The notes under the pieces: model-generated
Told to the model about the DNA's origin: nothing
Seen by the model: only the letters and a program-made list of their open reading frames with translations
Database searches by the model: none
Shown here: one piece after another, positions 1 through 17,034 of the stretch
How the letters are laid out: every line of letters starts with the position of its first letter
How positions within the stretch are numbered: the first letter of the stretch is position 1
Program-made: the position numbers and the translations under genes
From: Brucellaceae bacterium
GTDB lineage: Bacteria; Pseudomonadota; Alphaproteobacteria; Rhizobiales; Rhizobiaceae
Length of the DNA stretch: 64,000 nt
Direction of reading: 5' to 3'
NCBI GenBank assembly: GCA_020637775.1
Contig: JACKJV010000001.1
Coordinates: forward strand, 186,001-250,000

Positions 1-50
1 GAAAGGGCACCGCAGCCCGACCAGGCGCGGAAGGCCGGGAGGATCATGAA

Positions 51-1127
51 GTGGCTGACAAGAAGATCGCCGTTGTCGGCGCCGGAATCATCGGGCGAAC
101 CCATCTCCAGGCCATTGCCGCGGCCGATGGATTCACCATTGCAGGCATTGTCGATCCGGGACCGGGCGCGGCGGAAGCAGCGGCCCGATACGGGGCGCCG
201 CTTTTCCAGGACTTCAATGCCATGCTGGAGGAGAAGCCGGACGGGATCGTCATCGCCACGCCGAATGAAAGTCATGTCGATCTGGCCGTTCGCGCCGTCG
301 AGGCGGGCATACCGGCGCTGGTCGAGAAGCCCGTGGCCACCCGTGTCAGCGAAGCCCGATCCCTGCTTGCCGCCATCGACCGGCATGGCGTCCCCGTGAT
401 GACCGGCCACCACCGCCGCTTCAATCCGATCATCCTCAAGGCCCGGGATCTGGTGGGCAGTCAGCGCTTCGGCCACCTCGTGCAGGGCTCGGTGCTGTGC
501 TCGCTGAAGAAGGAAGACGGCTATTTCGATGTGGAATGGCGCCGCACGCCCGGCGTCGGCGGTCCGCTGCTGATCAACATGATTCACGAGATCGATCTGC
601 TGCGCTTCCTTTTCGGCGAGATCGCCAGCGTCTCGGGGGTCGCATCCACGATGGAGCGCGGGCTGCCGGTCGAAGACACGGCCGGGGCCATCCTCACCTT
701 TCGCGAGGGCGGAATGATCACGCTCAGCGTCTCCGACGCGGCCTGCGGCCCATGGGCCTGGGACATTGCCGCCGGCGAAAATCCGGGGCGGTTTCCCGCG
801 CACAGGGTGCAGTCGCATTTCTTCGCGGGATCGGCTGGCGGCCTCTCCCTGCCGGACCTGGCATTCTGGTCGCATCCGGGCGAGAAGACCTGGTATGAGG
901 AAATGCAGTCGTCGGTCGAACCGGTTGACGCCGCCGATTCCTATATCGGCCAGATCAGCCATTTCGGCGCCGTCATCGACGGCAGGGCCGAACCGCGCTG
1001 CTCGGCCCTCGACGGGGCGCGCAATCTCGCCATCATCGATGCCATCAAGGCCTCCTCGCAAGCCGGCATGCAGCTTTTCATGGCGGCGGACGGCCTGACG
1101 GCGAAAGCGATGGGGCCGGCAGCATGA
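51..1127 (+). CDS. Gfo/Idh/MocA family NAD(P)-dependent oxidoreductase
   Basis: Predicted cytoplasmic sugar- or cyclitol-type dehydrogenase of 358 residues, the usual length for this family. Seen: an N-terminal Rossmann fold with GAGIIG at residues 10-15, the EKPVA motif at 92-96 that marks the nicotinamide-binding region, and a C-terminal alpha/beta domain with INMIHEIDLL around 175-184, where H179 and D182 match the family's catalytic His/Asp positions. The start is a GTG preceded by GGGAGG at the right distance; the reading frame is open further upstream but has no better start. It overlaps the IclR gene by four bases (ATGA), so it heads an operon. Substrate cannot be read from the sequence; the neighbours suggest a ring compound or a polyol derived from one. 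Confidence 0.85.
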   Translation: MADKKIAVVGAGIIGRTHLQAIAAADGFTIAGIVDPGPGAAEAAARYGAPLFQDFNAMLEEKPDGIVIATPNESHVDLAVRAVEAGIPALVEKPVATRVSEARSLLAAIDRHGVPVMTGHHRRFNPIILKARDLVGSQRFGHLVQGSVLCSLKKEDGYFDVEWRRTPGVGGPLLINMIHEIDLLRFLFGEIASVSGVASTMERGLPVEDTAGAILTFREGGMITLSVSDAACGPWAWDIAAGENPGRFPAHRVQSHFFAGSAGGLSLPDLAFWSHPGEKTWYEEMQSSVEPVDAADSYIGQISHFGAVIDGRAEPRCSALDGARNLAIIDAIKASSQAGMQLFMAADGLTAKAMGPAA

Positions 1128-1954
1128 GCGGTGTGCTGGAACGGTCGCTTGCCATCATCGAGATGCTGGCGCGCAATCCGGCGGGGCTGACCGTCAGCGC
1201 GCTTTCGGCAGAGCTTGACATGCCGGTCAGCGCCGCGCACCGGCTGCTCAACGAACTGGCGAAATTCGGCTACGTGCGCCAGGTGCGGGCACAAGGCGAA
1301 TACATGCTGACAATCAAGCTGGCCGCGCTCGGCCTGGGCTTTCTGGGGCAGATGGGCGTGACCGACATCGCCCAGCCGATCCTCGACCGCATGGCCCGGC
1401 TCTCGGGCGAGTTGATCCGGCTCTCGGTCATCGACGGCAACAACCTGATCTGGGTCGGCGTCTCGCAGGGCGCGACGGGCGGGCTTCGCTACGATCCGAA
1501 TGCGGAGCAGGGGCAGGTCGTCCATCTCGCCAGCTCGGCCGGTGGCCACGCCTGGCTTTCGGCGGTCAGCGACGACGAGGCGCTGCGCATGGTGGCCGAA
1601 CAGGGGCTGCACCCGCCATTCGAGCCGGGACCGAAGGCTCCCGCCACCCTTTCCCAATTGCTGGAGCAACTGGCCGAGGACCGGGCGCGCGGCTACGCGG
1701 TGGCAGTCGATTCCTACACCGTGGGCATGGCCGCCATGGCGGTTCCCATCCGCCATCCGGACGACGGACGCGTGATCGGCTGCCTGTCCATTGCCGGTCC
1801 GGCGGTGCGCGTCACGCCGGCCTACATGGCGCGCATGGCCCCTGCCCTGCAGGAGGCCGCCGACGAGATCGCCACGGCCACCCGCGCCTCGCATTTCTTC
1901 GACAGGCCGGATACGGCCCCGGCATCCGCGCAGACGGCAGGCCGCAAACGATGA
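1124..1954 (+). CDS. IclR family transcriptional regulator
   Basis: DNA-binding regulator of 276 residues. Residues 1-60 form the winged helix-turn-helix (helix-turn-helix around LTVSALSAELDMPVSAAHRL), and about 75-255 form the IclR effector-binding domain with typical GLHPPFEPG and IPIRHP-like stretches. It is embedded in the catabolic operon, overlapping the dehydrogenase before it and the flavoprotein after it by ATGA junctions at both ends, so it is co-translated with them. IclR proteins commonly control the catabolic operon they sit in and respond to an aromatic or carboxylic acid effector; that role here is inferred. Confidence 0.9.
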   Translation: MSGVLERSLAIIEMLARNPAGLTVSALSAELDMPVSAAHRLLNELAKFGYVRQVRAQGEYMLTIKLAALGLGFLGQMGVTDIAQPILDRMARLSGELIRLSVIDGNNLIWVGVSQGATGGLRYDPNAEQGQVVHLASSAGGHAWLSAVSDDEALRMVAEQGLHPPFEPGPKAPATLSQLLEQLAEDRARGYAVAVDSYTVGMAAMAVPIRHPDDGRVIGCLSIAGPAVRVTPAYMARMAPALQEAADEIATATRASHFFDRPDTAPASAQTAGRKR

Positions 1955-3720
1955 CGGCAGACCCGTCCGGGCGGATCGACTGCGACGTGCTCGTCGCCGG
2001 TTCCGGCGCCGGCGGACTGGCCTGCGCCGTCGTCGCGGCCTTTCATGGCCTGTCGGTCGTCGTTGCCGAAAAGGAACCCGTCTTCGGCGGAACGACAGCC
2101 TGGTCCGGTGGCTGGCTGTGGATCCCGCGCAACCCGCTGGCGCGCCGTGCCGGCATCATCGAAGAGGCCGATGAACCGCTCGCCTATCTGCGCAGCGAGA
2201 TCGGCAACCGGATCGCCGATCCGCGCATTGCCGCCTTCCTGGCCAATGGCCCGGACATGGTCGCCTTTTTCGAGGCGAACACGGCTGTCGAATGGATCGA
2301 CGGCAACCGCATTCCCGATTTCCACGATACGCCCGGCAGCCGTGACGGCGGACGGTCGGTCTGCGCCAAACCCTATGACGGGCGCGCGCTCGGGGCCGAC
2401 ATTGCCCGGCTCAAGCCGCCGCTCGACCTTGTCAGCCTGGCCGGCATGGGGATTTCGGCCGGGGCAGACATGGCCCATTTCTTCAACGCCACGCGCTCGC
2501 CGCGCTCGGCCCTTCATGTGGCGGGACGGCTCGCCCGCCATGCCCGCGACCTGGCACTGCATGGCCGTGGGCTGCAACTGGTCAACGGCAATGCGCTGGT
2601 GGCACGGCTGATGAAAAGTGCGCTCGATCTCGGCGTCACGCTGATCGAGGGCGCACCGGTGCGGGCGTTGCACCGGGATGGCGCGCGGGTCTGCGGTGCC
2701 ACGATCGAACGCGAGGGACGGCCGGTCGACGTGATCGCGCGGCGCGGGGTGGTGCTTGCCACGGGCGGCTTCCCGCATGACCGGGAGCGGATCGCCGCGT
2801 TGTTCGATCATGCGCCAGAGGGCGATGGCCACCATTCCGCTGCTCCGCGCGCCAATACGGGCGACGGGTTGCGGCTGGGCGAAGCGGCGGGCGGCCGCAT
2901 CGCCGGCGACCATATCCATGCCGGTGCCTGGTGTCCGGTCTCGCTGGTGCCGCTGAAGCATGGCGGGCAGGCGCATTTCCCGCATCTGGTGGACCGCGCC
3001 AAGCCCGGATTCATCGCCGTGCTGCCGGATGGCCGCCGCTTCGTCAATGAGGCTGACAGCTACCACGATTTCATGAAGGCGCTGTTTGCCGCCACACCGG
3101 CCGGCGCGGCGGCGCAATGCTGGCTGATCGCCGACCACCGGGCGCAGCGCCGTTTCGGGCTCGGCTGGGCGAAACCCTTTCCGTTTCCGCTGCGGCGCTA
3201 CGAAAGCTGCGGCTATCTGAAGAGTGCCCCGACGCTTGTTAGCCTCGCTGCGGCCTGCGGCCTGCCCGCCGATGTCCTCGCCGGGACGGTCGACCGCTTC
3301 AATGCCCATGCAAGAGCGGGCGAGGATCCCGATTTCGGACGCGGGCGCTCGCCCTATAACGGCATGCAGGGCGATGCGGCGCACGGGCCGAACCCGTCGC
3401 TGGGCGCCCTGGAAACCGGGCCGTTTCATGCCGTGCGGCTGGTGCCCGGCAGTCTCGGCACATTCGCCGGCCTGACGACCGATGAATTGGCGCGGGTGCT
3501 GGACGGCGATGGCGTGCCGGTTCAAGGCCTTTATGCGGCCGGCAATGACATGGCCTCCATTTTCGGCGGGAATTATCCGTCGGGCGGCATCACGCTCGGG
3601 CCGGCCATGACCTTCGGCTATATCGCGGCCCGCCAGATGGCCGGCCTTCCGGTTTGCGGCGCAGACAGGACACAGAACAGGGAGAGGACCGATGAAATTC
3701 TACGAACTGGCCACGCTTGA
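1951..3720 (+). CDS. FAD-dependent oxidoreductase, 3-ketosteroid-1-dehydrogenase-like (paralog 1)
   Basis: Flavoprotein of 589 residues in the fumarate reductase/KstD family. Seen: the FAD-binding GSGAGG at 17-22, the acidic residue after strand 2 (AEKEP at 39-43), GGTTAWSGG at 46-54, and the C-terminal NYPSGGITLGPAMTFGY beginning at 541. Known for Rhodococcus KstD: Tyr318 is the general base, and Tyr487 with Gly491 binds the 3-keto group. The likely equivalents here are Y371 in NEADSY and Y542/G546 in NYPSGG. The third KstD tyrosine (Tyr119) appears to be replaced by F124 in IPDF. I infer oxidation of a cyclic ketone, not necessarily a steroid. It overlaps IclR by 4 bp and the following NIPSNAP gene by 29 bp. 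Confidence 0.8.
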   Translation: MTADPSGRIDCDVLVAGSGAGGLACAVVAAFHGLSVVVAEKEPVFGGTTAWSGGWLWIPRNPLARRAGIIEEADEPLAYLRSEIGNRIADPRIAAFLANGPDMVAFFEANTAVEWIDGNRIPDFHDTPGSRDGGRSVCAKPYDGRALGADIARLKPPLDLVSLAGMGISAGADMAHFFNATRSPRSALHVAGRLARHARDLALHGRGLQLVNGNALVARLMKSALDLGVTLIEGAPVRALHRDGARVCGATIEREGRPVDVIARRGVVLATGGFPHDRERIAALFDHAPEGDGHHSAAPRANTGDGLRLGEAAGGRIAGDHIHAGAWCPVSLVPLKHGGQAHFPHLVDRAKPGFIAVLPDGRRFVNEADSYHDFMKALFAATPAGAAAQCWLIADHRAQRRFGLGWAKPFPFPLRRYESCGYLKSAPTLVSLAAACGLPADVLAGTVDRFNAHARAGEDPDFGRGRSPYNGMQGDAAHGPNPSLGALETGPFHAVRLVPGSLGTFAGLTTDELARVLDGDGVPVQGLYAAGNDMASIFGGNYPSGGITLGPAMTFGYIAARQMAGLPVCGADRTQNRERTDEILRTGHA

Positions 3721-4309
3721 CACGGTGATCTTCGGGGGAGCGAAGGCGGCGCCCGCCATCGAGGCCTTCGTCAGCGCCCCGGAAGCGAAGGGCCGCCTGC
3801 TGGGCGCATGGGGCAATGATATCGGCGCGCTGAACAAGGTCCTGCTGCTGCGCGGCTTCGACAGCCATGACGACCTGCTTGCCGAACGCGACCGGGTGCT
3901 GCGCTCGTCCAATCCGTTCGGCTGTGCGGACCTTCTGACCGGCATGAGCCTGGACAGCTACAAGCCGCTGGATTTCCTGCCACCTGTCGAGACCGGAAAT
4001 TTCGGCCCCGTCTACGAGATTCGCACCTACCGGATGAAGGTGAACGGGCTCACCCCGACCATGGAGAAATGGGAAGCCGCCATTCCCGGCCGGCTCGGCT
4101 ATTCGAAGATGACAATCGCCATGTACTCGCTCGATGGCGCGCCGAGGCTGACCCAGATATGGCCGTATGCGAGCCTCGAACAGCGGGCACAGGCGCGCGC
4201 GCAATCGGTCGCCGACGGCAAGTGGCCGCCGAAGGGCGGGCCCGACTGGCTGACCCCGGACATGACATCCACGGTGGCCATGCCGCTGGCCATCTCCCCG
4301 CTGAAGTGA
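3692..4309 (+). CDS. NIPSNAP family protein (paralog 1)
   Basis: Protein of 205 residues with two ferredoxin-like NIPSNAP repeats. The second begins near residue 109 with VYEIRTYRMKVNG, the family's hallmark opening; the first begins at MKFYELATLD. Bacterial NIPSNAP proteins have no established activity but recur beside catabolic operons for ring compounds. The start has a strong GGAGAGG eight bases upstream and lies inside the end of the flavoprotein gene, so translation is probably coupled. A second NIPSNAP gene lies at 8787-9365 in the same island. Confidence 0.8.
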   Translation: MKFYELATLDTVIFGGAKAAPAIEAFVSAPEAKGRLLGAWGNDIGALNKVLLLRGFDSHDDLLAERDRVLRSSNPFGCADLLTGMSLDSYKPLDFLPPVETGNFGPVYEIRTYRMKVNGLTPTMEKWEAAIPGRLGYSKMTIAMYSLDGAPRLTQIWPYASLEQRAQARAQSVADGKWPPKGGPDWLTPDMTSTVAMPLAISPLK

Positions 4310-4316
4310 GGCTGTC

Positions 4317-5123
4317 ATGCAGCGCCTCTATTCGATGGCCTACCTGACCGGCAATGGCGCCGATCCCGTTTCAGCGGTCAAGCTGGCGGCATCCTGCGGT
4401 TATGACCTGGTCAGTTTCCGGCTGCTTCCGGCCGGTGACGAGCCGCTGGCCGACCTGATGGGCGACGACCGATTGCTGCGCGACGTCAAGGCCGCGATGG
4501 CCGATTCCGGTGTTTCGATGGCCGATGCGGAGATGATCCGCCTGAAGCCGGAAACCGACCTCGCGCGATTCGATCCGTTTCTCGACCGGATCGCGGAACT
4601 GGCCGCGAAACATATCCTCGTCGCGGTGGACGACCCGGACGAAGCGCGCGCCACCGACACCTATGGACGCCTGTGCCAGCGCGTGGCACCCTACGGGTTC
4701 AGCGCCGACCTGGAATTCATGCCCTGGACCGGCGTGAAGACCATCCAGGATGCGCGGCGAATGGTGGAGGCCGCAGCCAGTCCGGCGGCCGCCATCCTGT
4801 TCGACACGCTGCATTTCGACCGTTCGGCTTCGACGCTGGACGATCTGGCCGCACTGCCGCCCACGATGATGAACTATGTGCAGATTTGCGATGGCCCCGT
4901 GCCCTATGACGCCAGCGATGCGGAACTGGTCCGCGTGGCGCGTCAGGCCCGCCTCATCCCCGGCGAGGGCGGGATCGACTTCGCGCCGATCGTCGCCCGG
5001 CTGCCGGCGGGCATCACGGTGAGCGTCGAGGTGCCGAACCGGCCGCAGGCCGAGGCCATGGGGCTGGAGCGCTTCATCCGCACCGCGCTGGAAAGGACGA
5101 AAGCTGTGCTGGGCGAAGCCTGA
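4317..5123 (+). CDS. Sugar phosphate isomerase/epimerase family TIM-barrel protein
   Basis: Protein of 268 residues of the xylose isomerase-like TIM-barrel superfamily. Seen: alternating strand/helix pattern with family markers ILFDTLHFDRS near 160 (metal-binding Asp and His), MMNYVQICDGP near 184, and IPGEGGIDFAPIV near 212, whose Gly-Glu-Gly matches the conserved C-terminal loop. Such enzymes isomerise sugars or rearrange small cyclic polyols with a divalent metal. It is the last gene of the forward operon, seven bases after the NIPSNAP gene, and its stop faces the SDR gene 50 bases away. Confidence 0.8.
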   Translation: MQRLYSMAYLTGNGADPVSAVKLAASCGYDLVSFRLLPAGDEPLADLMGDDRLLRDVKAAMADSGVSMADAEMIRLKPETDLARFDPFLDRIAELAAKHILVAVDDPDEARATDTYGRLCQRVAPYGFSADLEFMPWTGVKTIQDARRMVEAAASPAAAILFDTLHFDRSASTLDDLAALPPTMMNYVQICDGPVPYDASDAELVRVARQARLIPGEGGIDFAPIVARLPAGITVSVEVPNRPQAEAMGLERFIRTALERTKAVLGEA

Positions 5124-5173
5124 CCGGACAGACCGCGCCTGGATCACCCGGTCGCGGCCTCCATCCGTGCCCT

Positions 5174-5956
5174 TCAATCGTTCGAATAGCCGGGGCGGGG
5201 AATGTGGCTCATCAGCGTCTGGGAAAAACCGCCGTCGACGATGATTTCCTGTCCCGTGACATAGCCCGCCCGGTCGGATGACAGGAAAAGAGCCATGTCG
5301 GCAATGTCCCTGACATGGCCGATGCGGCCCAGCGGGACAACAGCCTCGCGGGCGATCCGGGTCGGCTCATGGGCATAAAAGGCCTCCGACAGCGGCGTGC
5401 GCACAAGGCCGGGCGCAACGACATTGGAGCGAACGCCGCGCGGCCCCCATTCATAGGCAAGCTGGCGCGAGAGCATCGAAACCGCCGCCTTGGTCGCCGA
5501 ATAGGCATTGGAAAACGCCTGCTGGTGATGGCCGGAAATCGAGCCCACATGCACCACGGCGCCAGAGCCGCGTTCCAGCATGGCGGCGCCGAAGCGCTGG
5601 GCGCAGCGCAGATAGCCGGTCAGGTTCACATCCAGCATGCGCTGCCAGTCGGCGATCGCAACGGTGTCGAGACTGCCTGGTGTCACATAGGCCGCGTTAT
5701 TGACCAGGATATCGGCCGTACCATAAGCGGCCTCGACCTCGGCGACCGCCCTGGCCACGCTGTCGTCGCTCGTCACGTCGCAGACGATGGCCTTGCCGCC
5801 GGTCTCCCGCGCGGCCGCCGCAACCGTCTCGCCATTGAGATCGAGCAGCGCCACCCGCGCCCCCGCCTCGCCAAAGGCCGCCGCGATCGCCTTGCCGATG
5901 CCGCCGCCTGCACCCGTGACGACCGCGACCTTGCCCTCCAGACCAAGCCAGTTCAT
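5174..5956 (-). CDS. SDR family NAD(P)-dependent oxidoreductase
   Basis: Classical short-chain dehydrogenase of 260 residues. Seen: TGAGGGIG cofactor motif at 14-21, NNA at 86-88, N111, and a complete catalytic tetrad with S139 in HVGSIS, Y152 and K156 in YSATK. D39 after strand 2 (LLDLN) favours NAD over NADP. The C-terminus (GQEIIVDGGFSQT) is also typical. Its start overlaps the stop of the upstream flavoprotein gene by ATGA, so the two form one operon and probably act on successive intermediates, for example an alcohol/ketone step before or after ring desaturation. Substrate unknown. Confidence 0.9.
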   Translation of the reverse strand: MNWLGLEGKVAVVTGAGGGIGKAIAAAFGEAGARVALLDLNGETVAAAARETGGKAIVCDVTSDDSVARAVAEVEAAYGTADILVNNAAYVTPGSLDTVAIADWQRMLDVNLTGYLRCAQRFGAAMLERGSGAVVHVGSISGHHQQAFSNAYSATKAAVSMLSRQLAYEWGPRGVRSNVVAPGLVRTPLSEAFYAHEPTRIAREAVVPLGRIGHVRDIADMALFLSSDRAGYVTGQEIIVDGGFSQTLMSHIPRPGYSND

Positions 5957-7644
5957 GATTCCACTCCTGCCAGATGCCGGCCCGTGATGTAGCCGAATGT
6001 CATTGCCGGGCCGAGCGTGATGCCCGCGCCGGGATAGTTGCCGCCCATGATCGATGCCCGATCGTTGCCGACGGCATAAAGCCCGTCGATCGTGGAACCG
6101 TCGGCGCGCAGCACCTGCCCGGTCACGGTGGTGCGCAAGCCATCGAAGGTGCCGAGGTCGCCCATGATGATCTTCAGGGCATAGAACGGTCCTTTGACGA
6201 TCGGGCCGACACAGGGGTTCGGCTTGTGCTCGGGATCGGCCAGATAGCGGTTGAAGCTTGTCCGTCCGCGACCGAACGCCGGATCCTCGCCCTTGCCCGC
6301 GTGGCTGTTGTATTCGGCGACCGTGGCCTCCAGGCCTGCCCGGTCAATGCCCGCTGCCTCGGCCAGTTCGGCCAGCGACCGGCCCTTCTTCACATAGCCA
6401 TTGGCGATATGCGGAGCGAGCGGCACCGGGGCCGGCTTGGCGAAGCCCAGCCCGTATTTGCGGATCGTGGGATGATCGCAGATGAGCCAGGCCGCGGTTT
6501 CGGCCTGCCCTTCGCAGGCGCGCATCAGCGCCGCACCGACATCGTGATAGCTCTCGCTCTCATTGGTGAAGCGCCTGCCATTCTTCAGCACGGCGATAAT
6601 GCCCGGCTTGTAGCGGTCAAGCAGGTGGGGGAAGGCCCGGAAACCGCCGCCGCGCTGGGGCACTTTCGAGACCGGCATCCATGCGGAGGTATCGTTGAAC
6701 TCGATCGGTGCATGGCCGCCGACCGCCTCGGCGAGGCGGATACCGTCGCCCGTATTGGCTTCCGGCACGGGCGAGAAATGCTCGCCGCCGCGCGCCAGAT
6801 GCGGATAGGCCTTTTTCAGCTTCTCGATGTCATGGGCAAAGCCGCCGGTGGCAATGACAACGCCCTTGCGCGCCGTCAGCCGCGCGCCAGGCACCCGCAC
6901 GCCGCACACGCGGCCGTCCTCGACGATCAGTTCCTCGGCCGGGGTTTCCGTGTAGAGCGGGATGTCGAGGTCGAAGACCGACTTGGCAAGACGGGCCGCC
7001 AGCGCATTGCCGCTCGTCACCTGCACACCGCGCCCGTAGCGCGCCACTTCGGAGAAATGCTTGACCATGCGCCTGGCCACATAGGCGAAGCTGGCGGGAT
7101 TCTTCGTGGCGTTGAAGAAGTGCTTGATGTCGGCATTGGATGAATTGAACATCATGCCCATGAAGGTAATGGTGGACAGCGGCGGGCGCAGGCGCCCGAG
7201 ATTGCGGCCGAGCGCCGACGTGTCGAACGGCGCGGCCAGTATGGAGCGGCCGACATCGACCCCGCCGGGCACATCCGGGTGATAATCGGGATAGAGCGTG
7301 GGGACGAATTGCACCGCTGTCTCGCGCTCGAAGAAATCGACCATTTCCGGCCCGGCATCGATGAAGGCCTCGACGGCCTCTGCCGAATAGTAATTGCCGG
7401 TCTCCTGCTTCATGTAGGTGATGGCGTCGTCACGGCTGTCGGCAATGCCTGCATCGCGCGCGTGGCGATTGAGCGGAATCCACAAGACGCCGCCGGAAAA
7501 AGCCGTGGTGCCGCCGAAGACCGGTTCCTTCTCGACGATGGCCACCGACAGCCCGTTCTTCTTCGCGGTGATCGCCGTGGACATGCCGCCCGCGCCGGAT
7601 CCGACCACGACGACATCAAATGCCTCATCCCTTTCAGGCTGCAT
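5953..7644 (-). CDS. FAD-dependent oxidoreductase, 3-ketosteroid-1-dehydrogenase-like (paralog 2)
   Basis: Flavoprotein of 563 residues, clearly paralogous to the product of 1951-3720. Seen: GSGAGG at 15-20, VEKEPVFGGTTAFSGG at 37-52, NESESY ending in Y366, and NYPGAG with Y537 and G541. Together with Y121 in YPDY it appears to keep all of the KstD active-site residues (Tyr119, Tyr318, Tyr487, Gly491 in Rhodococcus). The start at 7644 has GAGGAGGTG just upstream; an in-frame ATG at 7671 would lie before that ribosome site and is less likely. It is transcribed away from the AraC gene across a 145-bp intergenic space and precedes the SDR gene. Likely role: dehydrogenation next to a ring keto group. 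Confidence 0.82.
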   Translation of the reverse strand: MQPERDEAFDVVVVGSGAGGMSTAITAKKNGLSVAIVEKEPVFGGTTAFSGGVLWIPLNRHARDAGIADSRDDAITYMKQETGNYYSAEAVEAFIDAGPEMVDFFERETAVQFVPTLYPDYHPDVPGGVDVGRSILAAPFDTSALGRNLGRLRPPLSTITFMGMMFNSSNADIKHFFNATKNPASFAYVARRMVKHFSEVARYGRGVQVTSGNALAARLAKSVFDLDIPLYTETPAEELIVEDGRVCGVRVPGARLTARKGVVIATGGFAHDIEKLKKAYPHLARGGEHFSPVPEANTGDGIRLAEAVGGHAPIEFNDTSAWMPVSKVPQRGGGFRAFPHLLDRYKPGIIAVLKNGRRFTNESESYHDVGAALMRACEGQAETAAWLICDHPTIRKYGLGFAKPAPVPLAPHIANGYVKKGRSLAELAEAAGIDRAGLEATVAEYNSHAGKGEDPAFGRGRTSFNRYLADPEHKPNPCVGPIVKGPFYALKIIMGDLGTFDGLRTTVTGQVLRADGSTIDGLYAVGNDRASIMGGNYPGAGITLGPAMTFGYITGRHLAGVES

Positions 7645-7707
7645 CGTCGGCACCTCCTCCTCGCCTCTCATGCGCCAGATAACGCCCCATGCGCAGGCCC
7701 GCCGCCA

Positions 7708-7736
7708 ATGGACAGGACCGGTTTTTTATTGGACAA
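7708..7736. promoter_or_regulatory. Candidate AraC-type operator: TGGACA direct repeat phased by 21 bp
   Basis: The space between the divergent flavoprotein and AraC genes contains TGGACA at 7709-7714 and again at 7730-7735, exactly 21 bp apart, each preceded by an A/T pair. AraC-family activators usually bind direct repeats spaced by two helical turns. The same bases also form a partial inverted repeat, CCAAT at 7705-7709 and ATTGG at 7728-7732. Assignment to the adjacent regulator is inference. Confidence 0.45.
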
Positions 7737-7789
7737 TTCATCACGAGGCGCGAAAGCGGGACGAAGGCGGGGGAGGACCGGGCGAAACA

Positions 7790-8692
7790 GTGAGCAAGCA
7801 AGCCAAAGGCCCCATTCCAAGCTTCTTCCTCTATGGCGACGAGCAACGCGACCAGGATCTCGATACGCTTCATGTCGAGCCGATTCGCGAGCGGTCCATG
7901 CGCCATGATTGGATTATTCATCCCCATGTGCATCCCGACCACGTGCAGTTCCTGTGGATTGCGGACGGGCATGGCGCCTTCACCATGGAGGGCGAAACCT
8001 ACCATGCCGAGCCGCGTTCGCTGGTTGTCCAGCCAGCCGGTTCCCTGCACGAGATCCGCTTCCAGCCAGGCACGGAAGGCCGTGTCATCACTGCCGCGGT
8101 CAGCTTCGTCGAGGCGGTGGCTGGCGGCGACCAGCGCCTTGTCGACGTGACGTTGCGCCCGGGCGCCTACACCATCCCGGCGGGCAGCCCGATGGCGGAC
8201 AAGCTCGGCGCCGCGTTCGAGGAAATCCAGAACGAGGCACGCTGGGAGAAGGTGGGCCGGCGCATGGCGATCCGCGGGCATATGCTGCTCGTCCTGGTGG
8301 CGCTGCTGCGCCTCAACGAAACCAGGCTATCAGGCGCAGAAGCACGCCGGGACCGGGATTTCGAGATCGTCACCCGCTATCGCGGCGCCCTGGAAGCGCA
8401 TTTCCGCAATCAGAAGGGCCTTGCCTTCTATGCACGAACCCTCGGCATATCGACGCAGCGGCTCAACATGGCGTGCAAGTCGCGGGCCGGACGAACCGCT
8501 TCGGAACTGCTGCATGACCGGATCATCGTGGAAGCCAAGCGAAACCTGCTCTATACCGAAATGACCGTCGCCGAGATCGGTCACGCCATCGGCTATGACG
8601 ATCCGGCCTATTTCAACCGCTTCTTCTCGCAGAGGGTCGGTGTTCCACCGGGCACCTTCCGCGCCGACGCGGCCACCACACACCGCGTCTGA
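7790..8692 (+). CDS. AraC family transcriptional regulator (PobR/HpaA-like)
   Basis: Regulator of 300 residues. The N-terminal third is a cupin-like effector domain (HPHVHPDHVQFLWIADGHG, with the usual His-rich metal-site-like strand), and roughly the last 100 residues hold two helix-turn-helix motifs ending in IGYDDPAYFNRFFSQRVGVPP, the AraC signature. I chose the GTG at 7790 because GGGAGG lies upstream; the frame stays open much further back but only as a shadow of the opposing flavoprotein gene. This arrangement resembles PobR/HpaA activators of aromatic hydroxylase operons. It is divergent from the flavoprotein/SDR operon and probably controls it. Confidence 0.85.
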   Translation: MSKQAKGPIPSFFLYGDEQRDQDLDTLHVEPIRERSMRHDWIIHPHVHPDHVQFLWIADGHGAFTMEGETYHAEPRSLVVQPAGSLHEIRFQPGTEGRVITAAVSFVEAVAGGDQRLVDVTLRPGAYTIPAGSPMADKLGAAFEEIQNEARWEKVGRRMAIRGHMLLVLVALLRLNETRLSGAEARRDRDFEIVTRYRGALEAHFRNQKGLAFYARTLGISTQRLNMACKSRAGRTASELLHDRIIVEAKRNLLYTEMTVAEIGHAIGYDDPAYFNRFFSQRVGVPPGTFRADAATTHRV

Positions 8693-8786
8693 TCTTGCCA
8701 ATCGTGCAAGAGAAAACCGCTATCGTCCATTTCCCCGCAGCTTCGCATCGGCACGATGGCGATGAAAAAGGGAGATGCGGCACGGC

Positions 8787-9365
8787 ATGATCTTCGAACT
8801 GAGAACCTACGACCTGAAGCCGGGAAAGGCGCCGGTCTACCTGGATTTCTTTCGCACGTTCGGCGTTGGCCTGGTGACGCGGCATCTGCCCATGGGCGGG
8901 TACTGGATGGTGGAGACGGGCCGACTGAACCGGATCGAACATCTCTGGATTTACGCGGATATGGAAGAACGCGACGCCTGCCGCGCCTCGCTGGTCAAGG
9001 ACCGGGCATGGATGGAGGATTTCATCCCCAGGGCCTTTGCCGACGTCACCGGCCAGTCGAACCGCTTCATGGCGCTGGAACGCTCATCGGACAGGCTCGA
9101 CGCGGTGATCGGAACACGGCGCGAAGCCCGGCAAAACGAAGATGCCGCTTCGCCGCTGTTCGCCGGCGGCCTCAATTCGCTTTCCCTGTCAGGCATGCCC
9201 CTTGCCGGCGATGGCATTCTCGGGGCGTTCCGCATCGTGTCGGGGCAGGAACCGGGCAAGCATGTCACGCTTCGTTCCGGTGATTTCCGGACGCTGACCA
9301 CGCAGGGCGGGGATCTCGCGTGGCACGAAATCATTCGCCCGCTGGCCTTGTCGCCATTGGCCTGA
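8787..9365 (+). CDS. NIPSNAP family protein (paralog 2)
   Basis: Protein of 192 residues opening with MIFELRTYDLKPGKAPVY, the NIPSNAP signature, and with a weaker second repeat in the C-terminal half. I prefer the ATG at 8787, about 12 bases after GGAGA, over the ATG at 8775, which directly abuts that ribosome site. It follows the AraC gene by about 95 bp on the same strand. Having one NIPSNAP gene for each of two flavoproteins suggests a functional pairing, but no catalytic residues can be named. Confidence 0.8.
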   Translation: MIFELRTYDLKPGKAPVYLDFFRTFGVGLVTRHLPMGGYWMVETGRLNRIEHLWIYADMEERDACRASLVKDRAWMEDFIPRAFADVTGQSNRFMALERSSDRLDAVIGTRREARQNEDAASPLFAGGLNSLSLSGMPLAGDGILGAFRIVSGQEPGKHVTLRSGDFRTLTTQGGDLAWHEIIRPLALSPLA

Positions 9366-9440
9366 CGGTGCGGGTCACGCAAAGCGGCAGCGGACCCAAG
9401 CCCCCGCACGTGCAGCCAACTGACATACCATTGAAATAAA

Positions 9441-9517
9441 TGGCGCACCCGAAAGGATTCGAACCTCTGACCCCCAGATTCGTAGTCTGGTGCTCTATCC
9501 AGCTGAGCTACGGGTGC
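9441..9517 (-). tRNA. tRNA-Arg(ACG)
   Basis: A full cloverleaf reads on the minus strand: acceptor arms GCACCCG (9517-9511) and CGGGTGC, D-arm AGCTCAGCTGGATAGAGC, anticodon stem CCAGA/TCTGG around loop CTACGAA with anticodon ACG at 9483-9481, and a T-loop GGTTCGAATCC. The 3' CCA is encoded. ACG reads CGU, and CGC/CGA after deamination to inosine. Confidence 0.97.
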
Positions 9518-9575
9518 GCACTTGCCTGTCCGGCAAGAATGGCGGGACCGGTCTGTGCCGACCGCCGTGGGCAGG

Positions 9576-9604
9576 TACCTAGCGGCTGTCGGCGACAATT
9601 GCAA
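9576..9604 (-). promoter_or_regulatory. Candidate promoter for tRNA-Arg
   Basis: On the minus strand TTGCAA (9604-9599) is separated by 17 bases from TAGGTA (9581-9576), a reasonable housekeeping sigma promoter whose -10 lies about 58 bases before the mature tRNA 5' end. Both hexamers deviate from consensus. Confidence 0.45.
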
Positions 9605-9646
9605 GCACCCCGCATGACAAAAATGCGAAAGCGGAAAGCGAAGGCT

Positions 9647-11146
9647 TCAGCCGGCCTGACGGCGCTGCTGGCCGCGCAGGCTTTGCAGATCGACGGGCTG
9701 ATCCGGGATCGTGATGGCGAATTCCGTATGCCCGCCACGGCTTTCCACCAGTTCAAGCGTGCCGCCATGGGCGCGCACCAGTTCCAGGGCGATGGCGAGG
9801 CCAAGGCCCGTGCCACCGCTGCGCGCCGACCCCTTGAAGGCGGCGAACAGGTTGTCGCGCGCCTTCTTCGGCAGGCCGGGACCGGTATCGATGATCGAGA
9901 TGACGGCGACGGAGCCTTCGCGGCAGGCGGTGACACTGAGCCGCTTGACGATCGCCGCGTCCGCGTCGCCGGCAAGCGCCTGAACGGCGTTGCGGCAGAG
10001 GTTGGCCAGCACGCGAAACATCTGCTCGGCGTCGCAATCGACCTCCAGCAGCTCGTTCACCCGGTTCTCGAAACGGATGGCCGCTCCACCCTCGATGGGC
10101 AGGATCGCGTGGACATCCTCGACCAGCTGACGCAGCAGGACCTTGCGCCGTACCGGCGGCGCTTCCTGCGCGCGCCCATATTCCAGCACGGACTGGGAAT
10201 AGTTGACCGCGCGGTCGAGCGTTCGCACCAGACGCGGGGCGAACGTCTGGATCTTGGGGTCCGTCGCCGTGGTCAGGCGATCGGACATGAGCTGGGCCGC
10301 GCCCAGAATGTTGCGCATGTCGTGGTTGATCTTGGACACCGCCAGACCGAGATCGGCCAGCCGCTTGCGTTCGCCCAGCGTCTTCTGCAATTCCGACTGC
10401 ATCGCCGCCAGTTCTCGCGTCGCGATGCCCAGTTCGTCGCTGCGCGGTTCGGGGCGAATGATACGGGCCGGATTGTCGGGCTCGGCCGCGAAAGCCAGCA
10501 TGGAGCGCGTCATGGAGCGAACCGGGCGGATCATGACCCGGTTGATCACGGCGAAGACGAGGACCGCCGTCAGGACGGAGATGAACAGGGAAAGCAGAAC
10601 GATGTTGCGCGTGTAGACCAGCAATTCATTGCGCAGGCCGGCATCGGGAATGACGATCTCGAAGTCCTGCGCGCTCGCTCCGACGCGGCCATGAATGCGC
10701 AGCATGCGGTCACCACCTGCAACCAGTGTGGAAAGCGCAGCCACGATCGAGCCGAGCGGATCGATGGCGGCCGAGACATCGACATGCTCGTCCACCATCG
10801 GCACATGGCCGGCCGAAACGAGCATGCGCGACATGCCGTCCTCGCGAACCGCGATCTGCAGGACACCGGTGGCGGACAGAATGTCCTCGCGCAGGGCTTC
10901 GGCGGTTTCTTCGGAATGCTCTCCCATCAGGAACAGGCCGGCCACTGCGGCCGTGTTCAACTTGTCCTGCGCCCAGCGCAGCCGGAAATTCGCAGCCGAA
11001 GGCGGAAAGATGAGCGATTCCGCTATCAGCACGAACACGGCGGTGAGCACGAGAAGCTTGGACGACAAGCCGCTGACCAAAGGCACCCTGCCGACAGGAT
11101 CGGCGATCCCTTCGGCTTCCTGCCGGGCCTTGTTCCCTGCGCTCAT
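9647..11146 (-). CDS. HAMP-domain sensor histidine kinase
   Basis: Inner-membrane sensor kinase of 499 residues. Seen: a transmembrane helix around 28-48, a periplasmic domain of about 130 residues, a second helix around 181-203, HAMP at about 203-255, the phospho-acceptor H275 in SKINHDMRN, an N-box (NLCRNAVQAL), the G1 box DTGPGLP and G2 box GGTGLGLAI. No response regulator gene is adjacent, so it is an orphan in this window. It is co-directional with the reductase and TVP38 genes upstream (19 bp after the reductase) and may share their transcript. The signal sensed is unknown. Confidence 0.9.
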   Translation of the reverse strand: MSAGNKARQEAEGIADPVGRVPLVSGLSSKLLVLTAVFVLIAESLIFPPSAANFRLRWAQDKLNTAAVAGLFLMGEHSEETAEALREDILSATGVLQIAVREDGMSRMLVSAGHVPMVDEHVDVSAAIDPLGSIVAALSTLVAGGDRMLRIHGRVGASAQDFEIVIPDAGLRNELLVYTRNIVLLSLFISVLTAVLVFAVINRVMIRPVRSMTRSMLAFAAEPDNPARIIRPEPRSDELGIATRELAAMQSELQKTLGERKRLADLGLAVSKINHDMRNILGAAQLMSDRLTTATDPKIQTFAPRLVRTLDRAVNYSQSVLEYGRAQEAPPVRRKVLLRQLVEDVHAILPIEGGAAIRFENRVNELLEVDCDAEQMFRVLANLCRNAVQALAGDADAAIVKRLSVTACREGSVAVISIIDTGPGLPKKARDNLFAAFKGSARSGGTGLGLAIALELVRAHGGTLELVESRGGHTEFAITIPDQPVDLQSLRGQQRRQAG

Positions 11147-11164
11147 CGCGTCTCCGATTCCCGA

Positions 11165-12592
11165 TCAGCCGAATTTTCGCAGGAAGCCGATCAGCCGGCG
11201 AACCCACGGATTGCGCGTCGAAGCAGCATAATAGGAAACCGCGGCGCGTTTTCCAATTTCGCTCATGGTCGGATAGGGCGGCACATAGCCGGCGATGTCG
11301 CGCACCGTCATGCCCTTCGATACGGCGAGGCCCCAGAGATTTATCATCTCGCCGGCATGGGCGCCGGCAATGGTGGCGCCAAGGATGCGGCCCCTGCGAT
11401 CCGTCACGACCTTGATGAGACCATCGGTCCTGTGCTCGGCCTGGGCGCGGTCGTTTTCCGCGTAGGGCCAGCGCAGGACGGAAATGTTGCGGTGCTTCTG
11501 CCGTGCCGCGTCCTCGGTCAGTCCGACATGGGCCAGTTCCGGGTCGGTATAGGTCACCCACGGAATGATGGTCTCGTTGACACGGGCCGGCAGGCGGAAC
11601 AGAAGCGGACGCAGCACCAGGCCGCCATGGTAGCCGGCAACATGGGTGAATTGCAGGCCGCCAGCCACATCGCCCACGGCATAGACGCGGCGGTTGGTGG
11701 TGCGCAGCTTGTCGGTGACCTTGATGCCGCGGCGGTCATGGGCAATGCCGGCCTTGTCGAGATCAAGTCCGTCCACGTTGACCGCCCTGCCCACGGCGAC
11801 CAGAAGATGCGTGCCATCCACGACGATGTCTCCATCCGGCGTTGCGGCATGGACGCGGACGCCGGCCTTGCCGCGCGGCTCGACCCCAGTCACCTTTGCC
11901 TGCTCGCGGATATCCACGCCTTCGGCGCAGAGCCGGCGCAGCACCACGGCGGCCAGTTCGGGATCGTCCTTGCCGAGGGCACGGGCCGCTTCCAGCACGG
12001 TCACGTCGGAGCCGAGCCGGCGATGGGCCTGCGCCATTTCCATGCCGATGGGGCCGCCACCGATGATGACGAGATGGCCGGGCTTGCGGGTCTGTTCAAA
12101 CAGGGTTTCGTTGGTCAGGTAGCCGACCGAATCAAGGCCCGGAATGGGCGGCACCAGCGGTGAGGAACCGGTGGCGATGACGAAACGCCGTGCCCGGATT
12201 TCCACATCTCCTGCCAGCAGGGTGCGCTTGCCGGTGAAACGGCCGTGGGCCTGGATGACACGGACGCCAAGCGCGGTGAACCGTTCCACGCTGTCATTGG
12301 GCGCAATCGCATCGATGACACCTTGCACATGCCGGTTGACCTGCCCGAAATTCACCTGGGGCTCGACATCGGCAATGCCGAAGCGCGATGCATGGCGCAT
12401 CGCCTCGGCCTGCTTGCCGGCCGCCAGCAGTGCCTTGGACGGCACGCAGCCATAGTTCAGGCAATCGCCGCCCATACGGCCCTTTTCGACCAGAACGACC
12501 TCGACCCCGAAGGCCGCGGCGGCAGCGGCGACGGTCAAACCGCCCGATCCGCCGCCGATGACGCAGATATCCGGCGTAAGCACCTCGTTCAT
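11165..12592 (-). CDS. Pyridine nucleotide-disulfide oxidoreductase (mercuric reductase/lipoamide dehydrogenase-like)
   Basis: FAD flavoprotein of 475 residues. Seen: FAD-binding GGGSGG at 13-18, the redox-active disulfide C44/C49 in CLNYGCVPSK, an NAD(P)-binding GGGPIGMEMAQ in the middle, the second FAD motif VYAVGDVAG, and a C-terminal dimerisation domain. It has no N-terminal heavy-metal domain and no vicinal C-terminal cysteine pair, so true mercuric reductase activity is unlikely. It is 21 bp from a TVP38/TMEM64 gene; this pairing is common in proteobacteria, where the reductase is usually annotated only by family. Confidence 0.85.
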   Translation of the reverse strand: MNEVLTPDICVIGGGSGGLTVAAAAAAFGVEVVLVEKGRMGGDCLNYGCVPSKALLAAGKQAEAMRHASRFGIADVEPQVNFGQVNRHVQGVIDAIAPNDSVERFTALGVRVIQAHGRFTGKRTLLAGDVEIRARRFVIATGSSPLVPPIPGLDSVGYLTNETLFEQTRKPGHLVIIGGGPIGMEMAQAHRRLGSDVTVLEAARALGKDDPELAAVVLRRLCAEGVDIREQAKVTGVEPRGKAGVRVHAATPDGDIVVDGTHLLVAVGRAVNVDGLDLDKAGIAHDRRGIKVTDKLRTTNRRVYAVGDVAGGLQFTHVAGYHGGLVLRPLLFRLPARVNETIIPWVTYTDPELAHVGLTEDAARQKHRNISVLRWPYAENDRAQAEHRTDGLIKVVTDRRGRILGATIAGAHAGEMINLWGLAVSKGMTVRDIAGYVPPYPTMSEIGKRAAVSYYAASTRNPWVRRLIGFLRKFG

Positions 12593-13901: not shown

Positions 13902-14261
13902 GTGGTTGACCGGCAAGACGATCCCAGGCCCGGGCGACTGACCAAACGGGCCGAATTCCTGGCCGTCCGCCGTGGCGAGAAGCGACGCGGGCGGTTTTTC
14001 CTGCTTGAAGTGGCCGACCGCGGCGACGGCGGTCTGCCGCGCGCCGGTTTCACGGTGACGACGAAGCAGGGCAATGCGGTCGAACGCAACCGCATCCGGC
14101 GGCGCCTCAAGGAGGCGCTGCGTCTGAAAGGCCGCATGGCAATGCAGCCTGGACATGACTATGTGATCGTCGGGCGCAGGGATTGCCTGAATGCCCCTTT
14201 CACAGACCTGAGCGACGAGCTCGTGCGGCGAATAGGCGGAAAACGTTTTCATGGAAAATAA
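13902..14261 (+). CDS. rnpA: Ribonuclease P protein component
   Basis: Protein subunit of RNase P, which with the catalytic RNA removes the 5' leader of pre-tRNAs. Seen: [21 protein letters not shown] near the start, the RNR-type signature [18 protein letters not shown], and a basic C-terminus. I chose the GTG at 13902 (119 residues, normal length). The frame remains open upstream through the whole of rpmH, so a longer form starting inside rpmH cannot be excluded, but no homology-like sequence is visible there. It overlaps yidC by 11 bp. Confidence 0.9.
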
Positions 14262-16050
14262 TCGCAACTTCTTCCTGACGATCGCCCTCTCGGTGGTCAT
14301 CCTCACCTTGTGGCAGGTGTTCTACATGAACCCGCGCATCGAGGCCCAGCGCGAGACGGCTCGCATCCAGGCGGAAGAACAGGCCAGCCAGCAAGCCGCG
14401 CAGACGCCAGCCCCCGATATGGCGGGCGGCGGGGACGCGACCATGCCGCAGGCGGGCACGGCCGGCACCGTTCCGGGGGCTCAAGCCGCTGCGCAGGCCG
14501 AGCAGGCCGTGCGCGTGTCCATCGACACGCCGTCGCTTTCCGGCTCCATCAACACGATTGGCGCACGGCTCGACGAACTGGTCCTGAAGGACTACCGCGT
14601 ATCGGTGAATCCGGACTCTGACCGGATCCAGTTGCTCTACCCGTCCTCTGCCAATCCCGGCTATTTCGCCGAGCTCGGCTATGCCGGCTCCGATGCCACC
14701 GGCGCCGTTCCCGGCCCGGACACGGTCTGGACGGTCGAGGGTGAGCCGGTGCTTTCGCCCGGCAATCCCGTCATGCTGACCTTCACCAATGACAAGGGCC
14801 TGACCTTCCAGCGAAGCTTCGCGGTGGATGAACATTACATGTTCACTGTGGAGGACACGATCACCAACGCCTCCGGTGCTGCGGTTTCCCTGCCGGCCTA
14901 TGGCCGCGTCACGCGTTTCAACAAGCCCGATACCCGCTCGGTCTACGTGCTGCACGAAGGCCTGATCGGGGTGACGGGCGAGGAAGGGCTGCAGGAAATC
15001 GGTTATTCCTCCATCGAGGAAGACAAGCGTGTCGTACCGGGCAAGTCCACCAACGGGTGGCTCGGCATGACAGACAAGTACTGGGCTGTGACGATGATCC
15101 CGCAGTCGGGGCTGACCTTCCAGCCGCGTTTTGCCTATTTCGACGACGGCCGGACGCGCTACCAGGCCGACTTCCTGACCGACCCGGTGGAGATCGCCGA
15201 CGGCGCGAGCGCCAATGTGAAGACACAGATTTTCGCCGGCGCCAAGGAAGTCAACGAAATCAACGCCTACAAGGACAAGTTCCAGATCCGGGAATTCGAC
15301 CTGATGATCGACTGGGGCTGGTTCTACTTCATCACAAAGCCGATGTTCTGGCTGATCGACCACCTCTACAAGCTGCTCGGCAATTTCGGCCTCGCCATCC
15401 TGGCCACGACCGTCATCGTCAAGGCCGTCTTCTTCCCGCTGGCCAACAAGTCCTATGTCTCCATGGCCAAGATGAAGACGGTGCAGCCGAAGATGATGGA
15501 AATCCGCGACACGTACGCGGATGACAAGATGCGCCAGCAGCAGGAGATGATGGAGCTCTACAAGCGCGAGAAGATCAATCCGATTGCCGGCTGCTGGCCC
15601 ATCCTGCTGCAAATCCCTGTCTTCTTCTCGCTCTACAAGGTGCTCTATGTCACCATCGAGATGCGGCACGCCCCTTTCTACGGCTGGATCAACGACCTTT
15701 CCGCTCCCGATCCGACATCGCTGTTCAACCTGTTCGGCCTGCTGCCCTATGATGTTCCGTCCTTCCTGATGATCGGCGTCTGGCCACTCATCATGGGTGT
15801 GACCATGTTCCTGCAGATGCGGATGAACCCGACGCCGCCGGACCCGACGCAGGCAATGATCTTCACCTGGATGCCGGTGGTCTTCACCTTCATGATGGCC
15901 GCGTTCCCGGCCGGCCTGATCATCTACTGGGCCTGGAACAACACGCTCTCGATCATCCAGCAGGCGGTGATCATGAAGCGGCAGGGTGCCAAGATCGAGC
16001 TTTGGGACAATCTCAAGGGCGTCTTCACCCGGAACAAACCGGCCGAGTAG
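14251..16050 (+). CDS. yidC: Membrane protein insertase YidC
   Basis: Inner-membrane insertase of 599 residues that integrates membrane proteins alone or with SecYEG. Seen: an N-terminal transmembrane anchor at about 5-25, a low-complexity Ala/Gln-rich linker at 30-85, the large periplasmic P1 domain, and the conserved C-terminal core of five membrane helices beginning near 355 ([18 protein letters not shown]), with the cytoplasmic loop [20 protein letters not shown] and the [20 protein letters not shown] helix. The length suits an alphaproteobacterial YidC. No yidD lies between rnpA and yidC. Confidence 0.97.
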
Positions 16051-16071
16051 CCGGAACCGGAACAGGACGAC

Positions 16072-16098
16072 AAACGGCCGGGCAACCCCGGCCGTTTT
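16072..16098 (+). terminator. Rho-independent terminator after yidC
   Basis: An 11-bp perfect stem, AAACGGCCGGG (16072-16082) with CCCGGCCGTTT (16087-16097), closes a four-base loop and ends in a short T run. It starts 22 bases after the yidC stop and closes the rpmH-rnpA-yidC transcript. Confidence 0.8.
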
Positions 16099-16264
16099 GC
16101 TTTCGGGACCTGGCCGGGTTAGTCTGAAGGCCTGTGCAGCACATCGCTGTTTCGAAAAAGGAGAATGCCGGCATGGCCATCTGAATCACGGGTCCCGGCG
16201 CGGCGGACCGCGCCAGCGAACCGGCTCCCGCCACCGTTCCTCCCGGCTGCCAAGGATCTCAGAC

Positions 16265-16918: not shown

Positions 16919-17034
16919 TCAAGCCTGGCGCGGCGCTGCCTGTCCGTGCTTTGTTTACCCTTGCGACGGCATGATTGCCGCGTCACCATGACCCGACAGG
17001 TCACCATCCCCCGTTGATCGATGGAGAAGCCGCC

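What the first reader, a model, noticed from the sequence alone, without database searches (positions are those of the whole stretch)
51..9365. Catabolic island with two ketosteroid-dehydrogenase-like flavoproteins and two NIPSNAP proteins, substrate unknown
Two operons converge here (51-5123 forward, 5174-7644 reverse), with an AraC regulator and a second NIPSNAP gene beyond. Paired flavoproteins plus a Gfo/Idh dehydrogenase, an SDR and a TIM-barrel isomerase look like one pathway that desaturates and reshapes a cyclic keto compound. No steroid ring-cleavage genes (HsaC, KshA) are present, so the substrate is probably not a steroid. I know of no described pathway with this set, and it is my best candidate for an undescribed system.
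Basis: partly seen in the sequence, partly recalled or inferred. Interest (0 to 1): 0.75.

Follow-up and report, generated by a model that had tools for sequence, protein, structure and literature searches.

The report
Candidate hydroaromatic acid degradation gene cluster
This stretch of a bacterial chromosome carries two neighbouring gene modules that related bacteria often keep together with genes for breaking down simple aromatic acids, so they probably turn a shikimate-like, non-aromatic ring acid into an ordinary aromatic one; the exact starting compound is not known.

Summary
They are two units. Module A (51-5123: Gfo/Idh, IclR, FAD, NIPSNAP, TIM barrel) and module B (5174-9365: SDR-FAD, divergent AraC-NIPSNAP) lie on separate contigs in the nearest relative found, yet cluster in several rhizobial genomes. 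Of 80 loci fetched with the module A NIPSNAP, 61 also carry two FADs, the TIM barrel and a shikimate-dehydrogenase-like gene, which the window does not show (it starts at the first gene). pobA lies within 10 kb in 9 of 80 loci, a QuiC-like gene in 7; in Bartonella choladocola pcaH, pcaB and pobA flank module A on its strand. 71 of 78 searched carriers have pobA, against 50 of 121 genomes of one order. Best reading: a shikimate/quinate-like alicyclic acid is imported, oxidised, desaturated by KstD-type flavoproteins and sent into protocatechuate catabolism. Substrate and reaction order are inferred. More distant NIPSNAP relatives sit in other contexts. No description found in the papers searched. 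New variant of a known kind.

The parts
51..1127 (+). Gfo/Idh/MocA oxidoreductase (module A)
   Evidence: PF01408 E 4e-28; below the IolG cut-off, 126 of 355 bits; present in 40 of 80 module A loci
1124..1954 (+).
   Evidence: PF01614/PF09339; 65 of 80 loci
1951..3720 (+). KstD/ChcC-like FAD flavoprotein, clade A1
   Evidence: PF00890; over the PRK06134 cut-off, 802 of 747 bits; clade A1 of the tree; Tyr318/Tyr487/Gly491 equivalents kept, Tyr119 is Phe
3692..4309 (+). NIPSNAP-A, two NIPSNAP stretches
   Evidence: PF07978, two stretches; model pLDDT 91.5; nearest solved folds 3f44 (putative monooxygenase), 2pgc and 5f9p (anthrone-oxidase-like), at 9-11% identity
4317..5123 (+). Xylose-isomerase-like TIM barrel, QuiC/IolI-like
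   Evidence: PF01261; nearest folds IolI (1i60), 5hmq and Lmo2234 (2g0w); Glu133, Asp163, His166, Gln189, Arg212, Glu238 invariant in 32 aligned sequences
5124..5173 (.). Junction between module A and module B
   Evidence: DNA match to the module A contig ends at 5127 and to the module B contig begins at 5174 in the close relative
5174..5956 (-). SDR dehydrogenase (module B)
   Evidence: PF13561; ChcB2 model 179 of 350 bits, below cut-off
5953..7671 (-). KstD/ChcC-like FAD flavoprotein, clade B
   Evidence: PF00890; ChcC2 model 549 of 900 bits, below cut-off; Tyr119/Tyr318/Tyr487/Gly491 equivalents all kept
7790..8692 (+). AraC-family regulator (module B)
   Evidence: PF12833/PF02311; HpaA model 128 of 275 bits, below cut-off; likely GTG start at 7790
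8775..9365 (+). NIPSNAP-B (module B)
   Evidence: PF07978; matches over nearly the full length (E below 1e-39) in only 3 of 121 genomes of one order

Best explanation
Module A (and the linked module B) is a peripheral catabolic pathway that turns a shikimate/quinate-like alicyclic acid into a hydroxybenzoate, most likely 4-hydroxybenzoate or protocatechuate, for the beta-ketoadipate pathway. Steps: (1) uptake by a branched-chain-type ABC or TTT transporter; (2) a shikimate-dehydrogenase-like enzyme of the RifI2 type, with Gfo/Idh and SDR enzymes for other hydroxyls or stereoisomers, makes the ring ketone; (3) KstD-type flavoproteins A1, A2 and B desaturate the ring next to the ketone; (4) the QuiC-like TIM barrel removes water or isomerises; (5) the NIPSNAPs act on an intermediate in an unknown way; (6) PobA and/or PcaGH finish. 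Shown: co-conservation among close relatives, family membership, conserved catalytic residues, pob/pca/QuiC-like neighbours in part of the loci. Inferred: substrate, order of steps, role of each enzyme, and that the window's own genome has the unseen dehydrogenase and A2.
For: NIPSNAP-A with TIM, dehydrogenase-like gene and two FADs in 61 of 80 loci. Dehydrogenase-like gene: closest solved relative of the one tested (L001) is 4k28; catalytic Lys and Asp motifs kept in the sequences printed. KSTD Tyr318, Tyr487 and Gly491 equivalents kept in all 150 flavoproteins bar one gapped row at the last two. The Glu, Asp, His, Gln and Arg of 5hmq that line up with the TIM barrel are invariant in 32 sequences. 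pobA within 10 kb in 9 of 80 loci and a QuiC-like gene in 7 of 80. Bartonella choladocola: pcaH, a pcaG-like gene, dehydrogenase, TIM, Gfo/Idh, A1, A2, NIPSNAP-A, MFS, pcaB, pobA in a row on one strand. pobA over cut-off in 35 of 38 plus 36 of 40 carriers, against 50 of 121 genomes of one order; pcaH in 34 of 40. Paracoccus alcaliphilus plasmid: module A genes beside a QuiC-type fusion, a second shikimate dehydrogenase and TTT genes. Rhizobium NXC14: shikimate dehydrogenase, branched-chain-type ABC and QuiC-type fusion together, no such flavoprotein in the stretch shown.
Against: No substrate is shown. The window has no dehydrogenase-like gene, pobA, pcaF/I/J or quiC in its 64 kb by tblastn, and its genome is not held. 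The first Ser of the AroE SxSP motif (carboxylate binding, recalled) is Val in the sequences printed, so a carboxylated substrate is not assured. 71 of 80 loci have no pobA within 10 kb, and five of the nine that do are one rhizobial-type group. Seven of 78 carriers lack pobA over cut-off and 6 of 40 lack pcaH over cut-off. The pobA background is one order, while carriers span several classes; the pcaH background did not complete; carriers may simply be genomes rich in aromatic catabolism. In the 121-genome sample four further genomes hold a 40-46% NIPSNAP-A relative: one has only an A1-like flavoprotein beside it and three none of the core. On plasmids, Rhodococcus and pCAR1 NIPSNAPs of 41-46% identity sit elsewhere. 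In Rhizobium ACO-34A module A is followed by sugar ABC, sugar kinase and tagatose-bisphosphate aldolase genes. Six of the 80 loci show no such flavoprotein.
Confidence: 0.55

Rival explanations
1. Cyclitol or sugar route: Gfo/Idh, TIM barrel and the dehydrogenase-like gene oxidise and isomerise a polyol without carboxylate, the flavoproteins desaturate it, and the pob/pca neighbours are general soil-catabolism company.
For: The TIM barrel's top fold match is IolI; the Gfo/Idh best NCBIfam hit is IolG; a 5-ketofructose reductase is the second solved relative of the dehydrogenase of L001; the first AroE motif Ser is Val; in Rhizobium ACO-34A sugar ABC, sugar kinase and tagatose-bisphosphate aldolase genes follow module A.
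Against: IolG scores 126 of 355 bits. Apart from ACO-34A I saw no sugar-cleavage gene in the annotated plasmid loci with module A, but only part of the families of the 80 loci was annotated. pcaH, pcaB and pobA flanking module A in Bartonella fit poorly.
Confidence: 0.2
2. Cyclohexanecarboxylate (Chc-type) aromatisation: SDR = ChcB, flavoproteins = ChcC1/ChcC2, product 4-hydroxybenzoate, then PobA.
For: ChcC2 model hits 499 and 549 bits, ChcB2 hit 179 bits; pobA, pcaIJ and pcaF near module B in four rhizobial-type loci.
Against: All Chc models stay below their cut-offs of 900, 1000 and 350 bits. No P450 is named in the annotated plasmid regions; it was not searched for by profile. The dehydrogenase-like gene, TIM barrel and NIPSNAPs are not part of the Chc route as I recall it.
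Confidence: 0.12
3. Steroid or other terpenoid catabolism by true KstD enzymes.
For: KstD structures are the nearest solved relatives of both flavoproteins by sequence.
Against: The three KstD equivalog cut-offs are missed by both (345-483 of 788-793 bits); no steroid gene is named in the annotated plasmid regions (not searched by profile); named neighbours are shikimate, quinate or protocatechuate type in several loci.
Confidence: 0.04
4. The two modules are unrelated pathways that happen to touch in this window.
For: They are on separate contigs in the closest relative, and only module A matches in the Zhengella regions compared; 73 of 80 module A loci show no NIPSNAP-B.
Against: In 121 genomes of one order the 3 with near full-length NIPSNAP-B are the 3 with NIPSNAP-A at 62% or more (G009 was chosen as a carrier), and in the other two both modules lie within about 20 kb. 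Seven of the 80 loci hold NIPSNAP-B too.
Confidence: 0.25

Closest known systems
Quinate/shikimate catabolism (QuiA/YdiB, QuiB, QuiC, then Pca; pathway recalled)
   Same: Shikimate-dehydrogenase family enzyme in the associated set, QuiC-like TIM barrel, branched-chain-type ABC or TTT transporter, protocatechuate genes nearby in some genomes
   Different: Two or three KstD-type flavoproteins and NIPSNAPs; dehydrogenase below AroE/YdiB cut-offs with Val for the first motif Ser; TIM barrel without the C-terminal HPPD-like half
Cyclohexanecarboxylate aromatisation (ChcA, ChcB, ChcC1, ChcC2, PobA; pathway recalled)
   Same: KstD-like ring desaturases with an SDR, and pobA nearby in some genomes
   Different: Below all Chc cut-offs; extra dehydrogenase, TIM barrel, Gfo/Idh and NIPSNAPs
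3-Ketosteroid delta1-dehydrogenase (KstD)
   Same: Family and Tyr318/Tyr487/Gly491 equivalents
   Different: Below KstD cut-offs; Tyr119 is Phe in clade A1 (73 of 75)
RifI2-class shikimate dehydrogenase (PDB 4k28; class name recalled)
   Same: Best solved relative of the associated dehydrogenase of L001, same QVKSP motif
   Different: Gene not visible in this window

Membership tests
3-Ketosteroid delta1-dehydrogenase (KstD) | Score over KstD equivalog cut-off | tested here: not met
   448 and 483 of 789 bits (NF009478), 423 and 444 of 788 (NF005882), 345 and 384 of 793 (NF009479)
3-Ketosteroid delta1-dehydrogenase (KstD) | Catalytic Tyr119, Tyr318, Tyr487, Gly491 (numbering recalled) | tested here: inconclusive
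   All four in clade B incl. 5953-7671; Tyr119 is Phe in 73 of 75 clade A1 incl. 1951-3720
Cyclohexanecarboxylate Chc pathway | ChcC2, ChcC1 and ChcB2 equivalog scores | tested here: not met
   499 and 549 of 900; 320 and 338 of 1000; 179 of 350 bits
Cyclohexanecarboxylate Chc pathway | pobA linked | tested here: inconclusive
   9 of 80 relative loci; none in the window
Quinate/shikimate catabolism | AroE/YdiB equivalog for the dehydrogenase | tested here: not met
   Four relatives scanned (L001, L003, L006, L009), all below every cut-off listed; gene not in the window
Quinate/shikimate catabolism | QuiC 3-dehydroshikimate dehydratase | tested here: not met
   4317-5123 scores 28 of 1200 bits
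Quinate/shikimate catabolism | QuiC-type metal and catalytic residues in the barrel | tested here: inconclusive
   Glu, Asp, His, Gln, Arg align to 5hmq; the fourth ligand lies past the aligned part (roles recalled)
Inositol catabolism | IolG equivalog | tested here: not met
   126 of 355 bits
NIPSNAP family (PF07978) | Pfam gathering score | tested here: met
   85.9 and 68.5 bits against 22.3
Hydroaromatic acid degradation (as function) | Growth on or turnover of such an acid | not testable with these tools
   Needs experiment

The most novel reading that the evidence does not exclude
A third aerobic route that makes hydroxybenzoates from alicyclic acids: a RifI2-type dehydrogenase plus specialised KstD-type flavoproteins (A1 with Phe for Tyr119, A2, B), a QuiC-like barrel without the HPPD half, and NIPSNAP proteins with a first defined metabolic role. 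It would be spread over alpha-, beta- and gammaproteobacteria and act on a natural alicyclic acid other than quinate or shikimate.
Probability: 0.35. Interest if true: 0.7.

Novelty: new variant of a known kind. Interest (0 to 1): 0.5.

Why it matters
If true, it gives a concrete biochemical context to two little-understood groups (RifI2-type shikimate dehydrogenases and bacterial NIPSNAPs), shows how soil and marine bacteria may aromatise alicyclic acids with flavoprotein desaturases, and names the gene set that a substrate screen can test directly.

Tried and rejected
Rejected: steroid pathway (KstD cut-offs missed); plain inositol or levoglucosan route (IolG 126 of 355, levoglucosan dehydrogenase 69 of 650 bits); a genomic island at the tRNA-Arg as proven fact (the first 12 bases of its 3' end have no second copy in the window; GC of 0.64-0.68 in 1-10000 lies inside the window's 0.615-0.683). 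Paper searches listed nothing on this gene set that I could see from the listings (the first two were broad and capped at 25 and 15 rows); of papers, only passages of PMC5906575 were read, and these describe a CoA-dependent cyclohexanecarboxylate cluster, not this one. The product is not settled: by formula, shikimate and quinate need no net oxidation by flavoproteins to reach 4-hydroxybenzoate, so a less oxidised relative (such as a di- or trihydroxycyclohexanecarboxylate) fits better; this is my own balance, not a result. No locus of the 80 was dropped before the counts. The FAD tree dropped pieces under 480 residues or with a stop, so the 'one clade only' lists are not absences. The fold of NIPSNAP-A gave no mechanism.
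Full report
What is there. The nine genes named in 'parts' are real by frame, overlap and domain. The flavoproteins belong to the FAD_binding_2 group of KstD and ChcC2; 1951-3720 passes the PRK06134 subfamily cut-off (802 of 747 bits), 5953-7671 just misses it (730), and neither passes a KstD or ChcC equivalog cut-off.

Two modules. In the nearest relative found (locus L009's genome, handle G001, a Phyllobacteriaceae MAG) window 37-5127 matches one contig at 81% DNA identity and window 5174-9365 matches another at 83%. So the window's arrangement joins module A and module B; the break lies in the 50 bases between the two convergent runs. In Zhengella mangrovi (G002) the two regions compared hold module A at about 80% and no module B, and the best clade B match in that genome is 54%.

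Co-conservation. The module A NIPSNAP brought 303 relatives in a collection of one genome per species; the best 80 were kept. By tblastn in these 80: TIM barrel 76, shikimate-dehydrogenase-like gene 71, IclR 65, two or more flavoproteins 64 (one in 10, none in 6), Gfo/Idh 40, module B NIPSNAP 7; TIM, dehydrogenase and two flavoproteins together 61. Loci cut by contig ends count as misses. Of eleven plasmid neighbourhoods viewed around a NIPSNAP-A relative, eight (45-69% identical) have a dehydrogenase-like gene (in Diaphorobacter it is annotated ThiF and was assigned by clustering), and three (41-46%; two Rhodococcus, pCAR1.2) do not. A tree of 150 flavoproteins from the 80 loci, the plasmid loci and the window gives three clades: A1 (75, with 1951-3720), A2 (66, in many loci beside the dehydrogenase), B (9, with 5953-7671). 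The window shows A1 and B; synteny with L009 and L011 predicts A2, the dehydrogenase and an ABC transporter left of position 1, but this cannot be checked because the genome is not held, and neither A2 nor the dehydrogenase is elsewhere in the 64 kb.

Linkage of A and B. In a sample of 121 genomes of the order of G009, near full-length relatives of the module B NIPSNAP occur in 3, and relatives of the module A NIPSNAP at 62% identity or more in the same 3. G009 was chosen as a carrier, so the fair count is 2 of 2. In both, the modules lie within about 20 kb, and in one (G067) pobA sits next to the TIM barrel. A chance match of two and two in 120 is 1 in 7140; if the six other genomes with a NIPSNAP-A relative below E 1e-40 are counted (a seventh at E 7e-11 set aside), 0.002. 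Against: of the four such genomes without module B, one (G053) has only an A1-like flavoprotein beside its NIPSNAP and three have none of the core in the 20 kb looked at. So the NIPSNAP family alone is no marker below about 50% identity.

Where the product goes. pobA lies within 10 kb of NIPSNAP-A in 9 of 80 loci and a QuiC-like fusion gene in 7 of 80. Five of the nine pobA were scored by NCBIfam and all five pass; three of the seven QuiC-like proteins were scored and reach 605-677 of a 1200-bit cut-off, so they are relatives, not certified QuiC. About 0.3 pobA would be expected by position alone in 5-Mb genomes, but five of the nine are one rhizobial-type group (L057, L063, L066, L070, L075); L028, L034, L052 and L077 are separate. 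In Bartonella choladocola (L077) pcaH, a pcaG-like gene, the dehydrogenase, TIM, Gfo/Idh, A1, A2, NIPSNAP-A, an MFS transporter, pcaB and pobA follow each other on one strand, with about 0.5 kb between NIPSNAP-A and the transporter. pobA passes its cut-off in 71 of 78 carriers searched (35 of 38, 36 of 40; L032 and L085 not held) against 50 of 121 genomes of one order; Fisher p = 9e-14 after setting aside 7 carriers in the control (71 of 78 against 45 of 114). That test mixes taxa and genome completeness and says association, not function. pcaH passes in 34 of 40 carriers, without a background. One plasmid (Rhizobium ACO-34A) has sugar transport, kinase and tagatose-bisphosphate aldolase genes after module A instead.

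Chemistry. Tyr318, Tyr487 and Gly491 of KstD1 (numbers recalled; mapped by hand through the alignment) are kept in all three clades, Tyr119 in A2 and B but Phe in 73 of 75 A1. So alpha,beta-desaturation next to a ring ketone is the likely reaction, with A1 differing in some way. The dehydrogenase-like protein of L001 is nearest to 4k28, which I recall as P. putida RifI2; in the printed members of the family the Lys and Asp motifs are kept and the first Ser of the AroE motif is Val. The TIM barrel model (pLDDT 95.8) is nearest to IolI, 5hmq and Lmo2234; 5hmq is, as I recall, the P. putida QuiC1, and the Glu, Asp, His, Gln and Arg that line up are invariant in 32 aligned sequences. NIPSNAP-A (pLDDT 91.5) is nearest to 3f44 (putative monooxygenase), 2pgc, 5f9p (anthrone-oxidase-like), with PenE monooxygenase and heme proteins of the coproheme decarboxylase type further down, all near 10% identity; this suggests a small-molecule enzyme but no reaction.

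Reading. The set looks like a variant of the shikimate/quinate operon (dehydrogenase, transporter, QuiC-like barrel) into which KstD-type desaturases have been built, ending in the protocatechuate branch. The shown part is gene content and residues; the substrate, the order of steps and the role of NIPSNAP are inference. Searches of the held library for NIPSNAP with shikimate dehydrogenase (one listing, on antibiotic responses of Acinetobacter), NIPSNAP with protocatechuate (none), and three of six cluster terms (none) found no description; subscription journals are mostly not held.

Noticed in passing
window 9441-9517: tRNA-Arg(acg) directly past module B; the first 12 bases of its 3' end have no second copy in the window.
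   Followed up: partly
window 59222-61339 and 61344-63221: Two tandem family 5 extracellular solute-binding proteins.
   Followed up: no
L051, L053, L059, L037, L041: An extra xylose-isomerase-like TIM barrel near module A in 5 of 80 loci.
   Followed up: no
L142 (Thioclava plasmid) 2161-9813: Shikimate dehydrogenase, TTT transporter, FAD and TIM barrel together with no NIPSNAP annotated, a possible simpler variant.
   Followed up: no
L112 (G002:C66) 8922-12363: Two further adjacent flavoproteins of this group (53% and 51% to 5953-7671) with SDRs nearby, elsewhere in Zhengella.
   Followed up: no
L141 (Rhizobium ACO-34A plasmid) 14004-19753: Sugar ABC transporter, sugar kinase and tagatose-bisphosphate aldolase genes follow module A.
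   Followed up: no
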